Shown one piece after another: positions 1-49,695 of a DNA stretch of 64,000 bases. A program made the translations under genes and the position numbers. The notes below the pieces were generated by a model. It was not told the DNA's origin and ran no database searches. It saw nothing but the letters and a program-made list of their open reading frames with translations. Source of the stretch: Terebella lapidaria (taxonomy: Eukaryota > Annelida > Polychaeta > Terebellida > Terebellidae); contig OX424568.1 of NCBI GenBank assembly GCA_949152475.1, forward strand, positions 4,935,667-4,999,666, written 5' to 3'. Each line of letters opens with the position of its first letter. Within the stretch, counting starts at the first letter, position 1.

Positions 1-55
1 ATACAGTCCGCGTGTCTGGAGCAGTCGGCCCCGCCACTCGCACACTCGTCAATAT
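1..55 (-). CDS. Gene A exon 57: EGF 51, cut by window edge
   Basis: Opens [18 protein letters not shown] after a TACAG acceptor and runs off the window, so gene A has further domains downstream. Confidence 0.85.
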   Translation of the reverse strand, partial: MLTSVRVAGPTAPDTRTV

Positions 56-48800: not shown

Positions 48801-49695
48801 AAACCGGAACCTGCCTAGCCTCACGCGAGTAAACCTATTGCTGCGGCTGTTTCTGCTGCCATGGCCGCCAAACCGGAACCTTCCCAACCTCGCCCGCGTG
48901 AACCTGTTATTGCCACTGTCTCTGCTACCATGCCCGCCAAACCGGAACCTTCCCAACCGGTTGCTTTGGTGACTCGAGGATTCAGACTGTCGACCAACCC
49001 GGACTGCGCGGAACCCGTCGCCACGGCGATATGTCGTACGACGGAATATTCTCGCATTGCCACGACTACCGAGGCCATATCGCTTGGCAGCCCGCGTGCC
49101 ACCCCGGTACCGCCTACGGCCGTAACTCTCAACAGTCACCAGCAAAACTGTCAACACGTCGGGAGTGAAGGGAATATGTTAGATCTATATCCAATACTGA
49201 ATCCAGGTTTTGGAAAATGTCATATTCAGTGCCCAATCTATGTATTGAAATAATTGTACCTAGTATTCAGATAATATAATAGGTAAATCAGTATCGCATA
49301 TGATTTATTCAATATTCAGGTGATAATATTAATTAAATTTAGGTCTACTGAAAATAACACCGTGTAATTATTTGTTATACTCAGTACTGCAACTATTTAT
49401 TGGTTTGCATAACAAGTACACTCTCAGTAAATTCGCTGAATTACTGTGTATTTAATTAATTAAGGTCTGTATTAAATAGAACACTTTGTTCATTATTCAG
49501 TTTACTTTTATTTCTTTTACTCAGAACTTTTACAAAACTACAACGCGAACTTATAATTTGGCGATATTCCGATATTTGGATTGAATCTGCATGGCACATT
49601 GCATGAAATATACAAGATTTTTTTTTCACATATACTTATTTTTTCCCCTGAAAATCCTTACCAGCGATAAACAGTGCTAAGACTATCCACCGCAT
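36711..49695 (-). CDS. Gene B: secreted antistasin/multi-EGF protein, paralogue of gene A (26 exons)
   Basis: A complete-looking minus-strand gene whose exon lengths sum to 3,294 nt (1,097 residues plus stop) with unbroken phase. Order: signal peptide, Arg-rich linker with three 23-residue repeats and an RGD, three antistasin-like + FOLN-like units, 17 EGF domains (one extended) and a short non-EGF C-terminus. It shares with gene A the phase-1 intron in the signal peptide, the basic linker, the two-exon antistasin/FOLN unit and the 123-nt EGF exons, but lacks WAP and lustrin-like parts. Many EGFs begin DDDEC, which should still bind calcium. Likely extracellular matrix, adhesive or mucus component; that role is inferred. 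Its 3' end lies about 12 kb upstream of gene A on the same strand. Least certain are the terminal exon and the 5' UTR; an acceptor-like TTTCAG at about 49,722 hints at a leader intron. Confidence 0.87.
37231..37353 (-). CDS. Gene B exon 25: EGF 17 (last)
   Basis: Opens [18 protein letters not shown], ends [10 protein letters not shown]. The junction base is T (ATAT|GTAATT) in place of the usual G, which marks it as the last domain before a different exon. Confidence 0.88.
37761..37886 (-). CDS. Gene B exon 24: EGF 16
   Basis: 126 nt. Opens [19 protein letters not shown], ends [11 protein letters not shown]. Donor GTAATT. Confidence 0.9.
38631..38744 (-). CDS. Gene B exon 23: EGF 15, divergent (114 nt)
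   Basis: Opens [14 protein letters not shown]: the C1-C2 loop is collapsed to one residue, calcium ligands are lost and [10 protein letters not shown] replaces the usual core. The frame and splice sites are intact. It may be decaying or may act as a hinge. Donor GTAATA. Confidence 0.78.
39821..39946 (-). CDS. Gene B exon 22: EGF 14
   Basis: 126 nt. Opens [19 protein letters not shown], ends [11 protein letters not shown]. Donor GTAACT. Confidence 0.9.
40158..40283 (-). CDS. Gene B exon 21: EGF 13
   Basis: 126 nt. Opens [19 protein letters not shown], ends [11 protein letters not shown]. Donor GTTAGT. Confidence 0.9.
40484..40937. mobile_element. ~450-bp palindromic MITE-like element in gene B intron 20
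   Basis: The left arm starts AAGCAGCTGCCTCCGAATGT and the right arm ends with its near complement (ACATTCGAAGGCAGCTGCTT). The arms match in stretches for about 200 bp, including CATCCGATTTAACACACG against GTGTGTTAAATCAGATG. No clear target duplication was found and there is no coding content. Confidence 0.72.
40993..41115 (-). CDS. Gene B exon 20: EGF 12
   Basis: Opens [18 protein letters not shown], ends [11 protein letters not shown]. Donor GTAGGG. Confidence 0.9.
41266..41391 (-). CDS. Gene B exon 19: EGF 11
   Basis: 126 nt. Opens [19 protein letters not shown]; sister of exon 16. A G run (12-13 bases) sits about 40 bp into the downstream intron. Donor GTTGGT. Confidence 0.9.
41598..41720 (-). 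CDS. Gene B exon 18: EGF 10
   Basis: Opens [18 protein letters not shown], ends [11 protein letters not shown]. Donor GTAATG. Confidence 0.92.
42262..42384 (-). CDS. Gene B exon 17: EGF 9
   Basis: Opens [18 protein letters not shown], ends [11 protein letters not shown]; close to EGF 17. Donor GTAAGC. Confidence 0.9.
42774..42899 (-). CDS. Gene B exon 16: EGF 8
   Basis: 126 nt. Opens [19 protein letters not shown]; nearly the same DNA as exon 19, so a recent exon duplication. Donor GTTTGT. Confidence 0.9.
43157..43279 (-). CDS. Gene B exon 15: EGF 7
   Basis: Opens [18 protein letters not shown], ends [11 protein letters not shown]. Donor GTGAGG. Confidence 0.92.
43588..43755 (-). CDS. Gene B exon 14: extended EGF 6 (168 nt, 9 Cys)
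   Basis: Opens [16 protein letters not shown] and ends [19 protein letters not shown], the same extension seen five times in gene A. GGYCCPC adds an odd Cys. Both genes place their first extended module as the sixth EGF. Confidence 0.9.
44111..44233 (-). CDS. Gene B exon 13: EGF 5
   Basis: Opens [18 protein letters not shown], ends [11 protein letters not shown]. Donor GTAGGT. Confidence 0.9.
44548..44670 (-). CDS. Gene B exon 12: EGF 4
   Basis: Opens [18 protein letters not shown], ends [11 protein letters not shown]; close to EGF 19 of gene A. Donor GTAAGC. Confidence 0.92.
45163..45288 (-). CDS. Gene B exon 11: EGF 3 (7 Cys)
   Basis: 126 nt. Opens [18 protein letters not shown]; the last loop [10 protein letters not shown] adds a Cys, as in EGF 1 of gene A. 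Donor GTACAG. Confidence 0.86.
45550..45672 (-). CDS. Gene B exon 10: EGF 2
   Basis: Opens [18 protein letters not shown], ends [11 protein letters not shown]. Acceptor ATTTAAG; donor GTAACA. Confidence 0.88.
45993..46115 (-). CDS. Gene B exon 9: EGF 1, non-calcium type
   Basis: Opens [18 protein letters not shown] and has [11 protein letters not shown] in place of NTxGSFxCxC, so both the calcium and the hydroxylation signatures are lost. Donor GTGCGG. Confidence 0.83.
46325..46621 (-). repeat. ~45-bp minisatellite carrying copies of the exon 8 donor of gene B
   Basis: About seven units directly downstream of exon 8. On the minus strand each contains GTAAGTGTGAATTGAGTCTT or a variant, then TTGGTCAAATTTATACAGCA. 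Three units keep AAG|TAAGTGTG intact, two read GTTAGTGTA and others have decayed. The real donor of exon 8 lies in phase with the repeat. Confidence 0.85.
46622..46682 (-). CDS. Gene B exon 8: FOLN-like half of unit 3
   Basis: 61 nt, phase 0 to 1. Encodes [20 protein letters not shown]. Its donor AAAA|GTAAGTGTGAATTGAG is the last member of the ~45-bp array that follows. Confidence 0.7.
46907..47013 (-). CDS. Gene B exon 7: antistasin-like domain 3
   Basis: 107 nt, phase 1 to 0. Encodes [20 protein letters not shown], then [13 protein letters not shown]. Donor GTGAGT. Confidence 0.8.
47269..47329 (-). CDS. Gene B exon 6: FOLN-like half of unit 2
   Basis: 61 nt, phase 0 to 1. Encodes [20 protein letters not shown]. 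The donor is taken as GAGA|GTACGG because this keeps the 61-nt length and phase of its sister exons. Confidence 0.68.
47851..47951 (-). CDS. Gene B exon 5: antistasin-like domain 2
   Basis: 101 nt, phase 1 to 0. Encodes [20 protein letters not shown], then [14 protein letters not shown]. Donor GTTAGC. Confidence 0.8.
48189..48249 (-). CDS. Gene B exon 4: FOLN-like half of unit 1
   Basis: 61 nt, phase 0 to 1. Encodes [20 protein letters not shown]. Donor GTATGT. Confidence 0.75.
48451..48551 (-). CDS. Gene B exon 3: antistasin-like domain 1
   Basis: 101 nt, phase 1 to 0. Encodes [20 protein letters not shown] and then [13 protein letters not shown]. Donor GTGAGA. Confidence 0.8.
48692..49147 (-). 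CDS. Gene B exon 2: Arg-rich linker with RGD and 3 x 23-residue repeats
   Basis: 456 nt, phase 1-1. It begins [17 protein letters not shown]. An RGD occurs in [12 protein letters not shown]. Three tandem repeats follow, each starting [12 protein letters not shown] and ending NRFTRx in the first two; the third drifts into a Ser run. The end is [12 protein letters not shown]. The net charge is very high and there are no Cys. It could bind nucleic acid, sulphated glycans or mineral, or mediate integrin contact; none is shown. Confidence 0.8.
49662..49695 (-). CDS. Gene B exon 1: start codon and signal peptide
   Basis: 34 nt encoding [11 protein letters not shown] plus one base, donor GTAAGG, context AACAACATG. 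Joined to exon 2 it gives [20 protein letters not shown], a standard secretion signal. Confidence 0.82.

What the first reader, a model, noticed from the sequence alone, without database searches (positions are those of the whole stretch)
1..49695. Splice-junction-anchored minisatellites as a recurrent property of two paralogous EGF genes
Of about 80 introns, four carry a minisatellite abutting an exon edge and containing that edge's splice signal, in both donor and acceptor versions, with unrelated unit sequences and lengths (53, ~67, ~45 and ~30 bp). In addition, single degenerate copies of exon starts lie upstream of exons 18 and 24 of gene A. I know of no described class of this kind. Possible causes are template switching at exon borders or selection for redundant splice sites.
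Basis: partly seen in the sequence, partly recalled or inferred. Interest (0 to 1): 0.82.

Follow-up and report, generated by a model that had tools for sequence, protein, structure and literature searches.

The report
Minisatellites made of duplicated exon edges
In an animal genome that looks like an annelid's, short pieces of DNA straddling the border between an exon and an intron have been copied many times in a row, a kind of repeat already known from lancelets, which shows how gene borders can be duplicated without obvious harm.

Summary
Four arrays in two minus-strand multi-EGF genes contain a splice junction: 15022-15552 (67-70 bp, acceptor), 19518-20052 (53 bp, donor), 21980-22123 (31 bp, donor), 46303-46623 (41 bp, donor). 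A fifth lies in gene A outside the window (85 bp x 8.9, donor). The two 'degenerate copies' are real (12569-12636, 15955-16023) and carry the same 68-bp unit as the 15-kb array. The claim that no such class is described is wrong: they fit amphioxus 'mirages', and a human minisatellite with multiple donors is cited. The mitochondrial gene order here looks annelid, so the class reaches beyond cephalochordates. Excess over chance is weak: 5 of 21 counted tandem repeats in three EGF genes lie at edges, 5.2 expected; among those of 3 or more copies 5 of 7 (P 0.04, split chosen afterwards). No period is a multiple of 3, and in the four arrays checked for frame distal copies bring a stop, so use as spare protein-making sites is unlikely. 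Most novel: acceptors at 12.57 and 15.05 kb share the edge unit more closely than their exon bodies (0.67 identity) would suggest, as if the edge had been copied between exons.

The parts
15022..15552 (-). Array A1, acceptor type: about 8 units of 67-70 bp, each about 38 nt of intron tail ending TTTTTCAG plus the first 30 nt of the EGF exon
14929..15051 (-). EGF exon whose acceptor edge is repeated in A1
19518..20052 (-). Array A2, donor type: units of 53 bp (one of 59), about 40 nt of exon tail plus GTGAGTAAACTCT
20014..20136 (-). EGF exon whose donor edge is repeated in A2 (end placed by eye)
21980..22123 (-). Array A3, donor type: 31-bp units beginning at the donor (GTCAGT and GTTAGT alternating, hence a 62-bp higher-order repeat); the 33-bp repeat at 21888-21973 looks by eye like its decayed continuation
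46303..46623 (-). Array of gene B, donor type: about 8 units of 41 bp, GTAAGT...ATACAGCAA; the donor is altered in some copies
46622..46682 (-). Exon of gene B whose donor begins that array (placed by eye)
12569..12636 (-). Single degenerate copy of the A1 unit directly upstream of exon 12568-12446
15955..16023 (-). Single degenerate copy of the A1 unit directly upstream of exon 15954-15832
   Evidence: not found by the genome-wide search
1..23350 (-). Gene A, multi-EGF; EGF exons continue beyond the window to about C15:4909888; exon 1 not identified
37231..49695 (-). Gene B, a second multi-EGF gene, with a likely signal-peptide exon starting at 49695 (by eye)

Best explanation
These are 'mirage'-type minisatellites: a short segment at or across an exon-intron junction was duplicated in tandem, the extra copies fell on the intron side, and the array then grew and was homogenised as minisatellites are, by slippage or unequal exchange. 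One intact junction stays at the exon end, so the exon can still be spliced there and the array behaves as intron. Shown: anatomy, higher-order repeat structure in two arrays, stop codons after distal sites in four. Inferred: that the exon-proximal site is the one used, that the copies are close to neutral, and the growth mechanism. The 68-bp acceptor unit is also present once at two other exons of the same gene, either by old exon-cassette duplication or by copying of the edge alone.
For: Each of the five arrays contains or begins at one junction and has the real exon at one end. Whole-genome DNA searches place the 53-bp unit only at A2 and the 68-bp unit only at A1 and the 12.57-kb acceptor; they are not exhaustive (the 15.95-kb copy was missed), and the other three units were searched only in about 305 kb. 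A1 also repeats in blocks of 3 units (period 203) and A3 in blocks of 2 (period 62), as exchange between copies would give; in A1 and A3 the copy farthest from the exon is the most degenerate. Periods modulo 3 are 2, 2, 1, 2, 1. Translations past the first donor of A2, A3 and A5 and from the seven distal acceptors of A1 meet a stop; for gene B three frames were printed and exon phase is inferred. Number at edges equals random placement: 5 of 21 against 5.2. Tandem duplication of whole exon plus intron occurs in 6 of the 17 regions and once in the C12 region, so local tandem duplication of other sizes is no surprise. Published mirages match in form, and the passages say they seem not to interfere with splicing.
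Against: Among repeats of 3 or more copies 5 of 7 are at edges (2.3 expected, P 0.04), against 0 of 14 with fewer copies (Fisher P 0.001); with the two decayed edge units added to the latter, P is 0.011. This hints at a bias that neutrality alone does not explain, though the cut was chosen after seeing the data. Edge arrays are concentrated in gene A (4 of 208 against 0 of 563 junctions), and repeat density does not neatly explain that: 6.6% of bases in the C15 region, but up to 13.5% in the eight other regions listed, in which none was flagged. In the genome-wide pattern count the donor core in triple tandem has 252 matches against 69 for its reversed control. No transcript data were available.
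Confidence: 0.73

Rival explanations
1. Exon edges are favoured sites for array growth, by mutation bias: exon ends next to intron promote expansion, so that edge duplications become long arrays while intron-internal ones mostly stay at two copies.
For: 5 of 7 repeats with 3 or more copies are at edges, 0 of 14 with fewer (Fisher P 0.001; 0.011 with the two decayed edge units). Unit GC is 0.48-0.58 in four of five, while 2-kb bins of the window run from 0.32 to 0.46. Donor-core triple tandems 252 against 69 reversed.
Against: The cut at 3 copies was made afterwards. If gene A's unidentified exon 1 lies beyond them, multi-copy arrays at 26897, 29559, 32473 and 32700 would be intronic and not at edges, about 5 of 11. 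Large multi-copy arrays in the C12 EGF region are not at exon edges (six with 5 or more copies, some perhaps intergenic; only a 14-bp x 3.1 repeat lies 3 nt from an exon). By hand count, over the part of the genome that the truncated listing covers (C1, C2, C3 to 26.4 Mb), donor-core arrays fall in 6 loci and reversed controls in 4, so the difference in matches is mostly a few long arrays.
Confidence: 0.25
2. The arrays are kept by selection, as spare splice sites or as a dose control by unproductive splicing.
For: Splice cores vary less than the rest, 2 of 41 against 28 of 237 columns, in the predicted direction.
Against: Not significant (P 0.28). In gene B the donor is altered in some copies, and distal sites checked lead to stop codons. 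No such array was flagged at the 563 EGF junctions outside gene A.
Confidence: 0.08
3. The shared 68-bp unit at 12.57, 15.05 and 15.95 kb is inherited: an exon cassette that already had a doubled acceptor was duplicated, and the exon bodies then diverged.
For: All three loci have the unit in the same place and order. Exon 15051 is the second-best match of exon 12568 among 104, and their identity of 0.67 is at the 91st percentile of pairs.
Against: The 12568/15051 pair has the highest intron-tail identity of 5460 exon pairs of gene A (0.79) while its exon identity is 0.67; in three other regions all 268 pairs with tails at 0.74 or more have exons at 0.81 or more. The degenerate copies resemble the head of exon 15051 (26 and 25 of 30) more than the exon they adjoin (21 and 20 of 30), though exon 4868 ties at 26 for one of them.
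Confidence: 0.48
4. Assembly artefact.
For: Tandem arrays are error-prone in assemblies (general knowledge).
Against: Arrays are under 0.8 kb, copies differ from each other, and five with unlike units occur in one assembly of 438 contigs.
Confidence: 0.03

Closest known systems
Amphioxus 'mirages' (globin genes BflGb6 and BflGb9, Adh3, troponin C, PGBD5): PMC3087553 and PMC3902484, passages
   Same: Minisatellite-like tandem duplications spanning an intron-exon boundary, at 5' or 3' boundaries; many copies carry AG or GT signals; units 10-72 bp in Adh3, 150-160 bp in globins
   Different: There cephalochordates, here annelid-like mitochondrial gene order; here five arrays in two neighbouring EGF genes and one unit present at three exons; splicing and length variation not tested here
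Human interferon-induced transcript minisatellite with multiple splice donor sites (Turri et al. 1995; that it is gene 6-16/IFI6 is recalled)
   Same: A minisatellite that supplies several donor sites, by its title
   Different: Paper not held; nothing else of it was seen
Internal tandem repeats in human segmental duplications, PMC2812944, passages
   Same: Minisatellite growth at exon-intron boundaries changes gene structure and may form introns
   Different: Recent human paralogs, half of the repeats coding; not defined by containing a splice signal
Intron gain by tandem genomic duplication, for example PMC4974935 (listing only)
   Same: Tandem duplication tied to splice signals
   Different: There it yields a new intron; here the junction was there before

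Membership tests
mirage | Tandem minisatellite-like array | tested here: met
mirage | Unit spans an exon-intron boundary | tested here: met
   A1, A2 and A5 units hold 30, about 40 and 74 nt of exon. A3 and gene B units hold a few exon nt at most, so there it is met only in that the unit holds the donor signal
mirage | Both 5' and 3' boundaries affected | tested here: met
   four donor arrays, one acceptor array
mirage | Normal splicing not disturbed | not testable with these tools
   no transcript data
mirage | Length polymorphism, somatic instability | not testable with these tools
   one assembly only
mirage | Occurs in cephalochordates (where the class is known, not part of what it is) | tested here: not met
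   nad3-nad2-cox1-cox2-atp8-cox3 in L034 (genes other than cox1 named by eye) is the annelid order, by recall; no named relative was compared

The most novel reading that the evidence does not exclude
A splice-edge unit (intron tail plus exon head) has been copied between acceptors of different exons in one gene without the exon bodies, probably by template switching or gene conversion guided by the homologous EGF exon starts, and it seeded, or came from, the array at 15.05 kb. Splice edges would then be exchangeable modules inside multi-EGF genes.
Probability: 0.32. Interest if true: 0.6.

Novelty: new member of a known kind. Interest (0 to 1): 0.42.

Why it matters
It shows that mirage-type repeats, which the papers seen here report from lancelets, also occur in an animal with annelid-like mitochondria and can recur within one gene. 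They are natural tests of how the splicing machinery picks one of many near-identical sites, and possible raw material for new introns. If edge units really move between exons, they add a way for splice sites to evolve apart from exons.

Tried and rejected
Rejected: that unit multiplication keeps the reading frame (no period is a multiple of 3). Rejected: two weak hits of the junction scan at C15 index 58015 and 58373, which are an EGF exon missed by my expression. The junction scan ranked 8 of 771 junctions above all controls against 5.1 expected; beyond the four arrays and those two nothing stood out. It failed to flag the two degenerate A1 copies because its control edges share the EGF exon start; a dedicated scan did (5 of 395 acceptors with 13 or more of 16 matches against 0 in reversed and 0 in shuffled introns; the A1 acceptor itself was left out; two of the five lie in the whole-exon duplicates of gene C, and one at 4160 was not followed up). 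Amphioxus origin: a search for GFP-like genes found none, but its control rang nowhere, so it shows no absence; the same holds for molluscan haemocyanin. A tRNA scan of L034 found none. Gene A exon 1 was not found. One search repeated a control that one search had already printed; one search listed only its first places. In one search, 24 repeats were found and 3 dropped (2 whole-exon, 1 exon-internal); the decayed tail of A3, a 359-bp repeat of two copies and two overlapping repeats each count as separate intronic cases. The exon list is by regular expression plus hand-placed exons and misses some; the donor of exon 20136-20014 was set 9 nt off in scripts, still inside the array. In one search I used full-length internal copies: A1 6 of 8, A2 8 of 10, A3 4 of 5, gene B 4 of 9 pieces, A5 4 of 9 (near-identical rows left out).

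Full report
Observation. The window lies at C15:4935667-4999666 of a 761-Mb genome in 438 contigs. Two minus-strand genes made mostly of one-exon EGF domains occupy it: gene A (to about 23.35 kb, continuing left of the window) and gene B (37.2-49.7 kb). Read on the minus strand, each holds or begins at a splice junction and has the intact exon at one end. A1 (15022-15552) repeats an acceptor: about 38 nt of intron tail and 30 nt of exon head. A2 (19518-20052) repeats a donor: about 40 nt of exon tail and 13 nt of intron. A3 (21980-22123) and the gene B array (46303-46623) begin at the donor and hold little or no exon. A fifth, A5, at C15:4910452-4911211 in the part of gene A outside the window, repeats 74 nt of exon tail and 11 nt of intron, 8.9 copies, 98% matches.

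Degenerate copies. A profile of A1 units alone finds full-length copies at 12569-12636 (E 3.8e-12) and 15955-16023 (E 7.6e-7), each directly upstream of an EGF exon, in about 305 kb. The whole-genome DNA search with the 68-bp unit reports, outside A1, only the first (E 1.1e-9); it misses the second, so it is not exhaustive.

More than chance? In genes A, B and C (C at C15:4.867-4.896 Mb) 21 tandem repeats of period 15 or more, score 60 or more, remain after dropping 2 whole-exon and 1 exon-internal; 5 are at edges, and random placement of one unit predicts 5.2 (P of 5 or more 0.63). Of those with 3 or more copies 5 of 7 are at edges (2.3 expected, P 0.04), of those with fewer 0 of 14 (Fisher P 0.001). 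Adding the two decayed edge copies to the second class gives P 0.011. The split was chosen after seeing the data, decayed intronic duplications were not searched alike, the exon list is incomplete, and arrays between 24 and 33 kb were left out because gene A's exon 1 is unknown; four of those have several copies and none is at an exon that I found. Of 771 EGF junctions tested, 208 are in gene A (the 4 arrays) and 563 elsewhere (0 arrays; P 0.005). Density of repeats does not neatly explain this: 6.6% of bases in the C15 region, 0 to 13.5% in eight other regions where no edge array was flagged. Genome-wide, triple tandem occurrences of the donor core AGGTGAGT number 252 against 69 for the reversed word. 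The listing is cut at C3:26.4 Mb; up to there, by hand count, they fall in 6 loci against 4 for the control, so much of the difference comes from a few long arrays. I take the question of an excess as open.

What the copies can do. The periods 68, 53, 31, 41 and 85 are none of them multiples of 3. Reading on past the first donor of A2, A3 and A5, and from each of the seven distal acceptors of A1, meets a stop codon; for gene B the likely frame also meets one, but exon phase is inferred. Splice cores are not significantly less variable than the rest of the units, 2 of 41 against 28 of 237 columns (P 0.28). Higher-order periods (203 in A1, 62 in A3) are ordinary minisatellite behaviour. The simplest account is tolerance: the exon-proximal site is kept and the rest is intron. 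Use of that site is inferred.

A shared edge. Exons 12568, 15051 and 15954 share the unit, yet their bodies are only moderately alike: identities 0.67 (12568 with 15051), 0.68 (15051 with 15954) and 0.65 (12568 with 15954), mutual ranks 2 to 25 of 104, the first at the 91st percentile of all pairs. The intron tails of 12568 and 15051 are the most alike of all 5460 exon pairs of gene A (0.79; next 0.71), while in three other regions every one of 268 pairs with tails at 0.74 or more has exons at 0.81 or more. The degenerate copies also resemble the head of exon 15051 more than their own exon (26 and 25 against 21 and 20 of 30; exon 4868 ties at 26 for the first). This favours copying of the edge alone, but the case rests mainly on one pair (the 15954 tails are only 0.65), and old cassette duplication with faster divergence of the exons is not excluded.

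Compared with what is known. [quoted passage not shown] The PGBD5 paper adds further lancelet genes (PMC3902484, passage). A human minisatellite with multiple donor sites is cited by others (paper not held). Tandem repeats at exon-intron boundaries in human paralogs are discussed in PMC2812944 (passages). So the class is described. The mitochondrial contig has nad3-nad2-cox1-cox2-atp8-cox3 without atp6 between (named by eye except cox1), which I recall as the annelid order. A search for papers with annelid, minisatellite, splice site and intron listed one, on earthworm metallothionein genes with minisatellites in intron 1 (passages); a search for boundary-duplication phrases listed four papers, of which the two lancelet ones are of this kind. 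In these two searches I saw no annelid case.

Verdict. Real, correctly described, of a known kind, new in this lineage as far as seen; a positional excess is open; the shared edge unit is the most interesting point.

Noticed in passing
C417 (L035), C417:44633-46450: A second, very different cox1 with a long internal insertion, followed by nad1 (by eye), on its own contig; resembles ciliate mitochondrial DNA (recalled), so perhaps a symbiont or contaminant.
   Followed up: partly
window 48771-48958: A 69-bp repeat, 2.7 copies, inside an exon of gene B, in frame, coding for a basic Gly/Arg-rich stretch.
   Followed up: no
window 32473-32658 and 32700-32891: Two neighbouring arrays whose units look like reverse complements of each other, so a large inverted repeat (by eye).
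   Followed up: no
window 26897-27617 and 29559-30057: Large arrays (59 bp x 12; 21 bp x 23) between genes A and B, not at any exon that I found.
   Followed up: no
window 57646-58758, minus strand: Open frame of 370 aa that looks like an AGC-type protein kinase catalytic subunit (by eye).
   Followed up: no
window 46303-46623 and 21980-22123: The 41-bp unit reads as a tiny GT...AG segment followed by CAA, and the 31-bp unit runs GT...AG exactly. Perhaps chance.
   Followed up: no
C14:9828001-9848000, C17:6736001-6756000, L002, L007, L008: Tandem duplication of whole EGF exon plus intron (periods about 218-475) in related genes.
   Followed up: partly
C12:10080001-10130000, index 35870-35911: A 14-bp x 3.1 repeat (ATGTGCAATTTTTC) lying 3 nt from an EGF exon, perhaps a small repeat of an acceptor's pyrimidine tract.
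   Followed up: no
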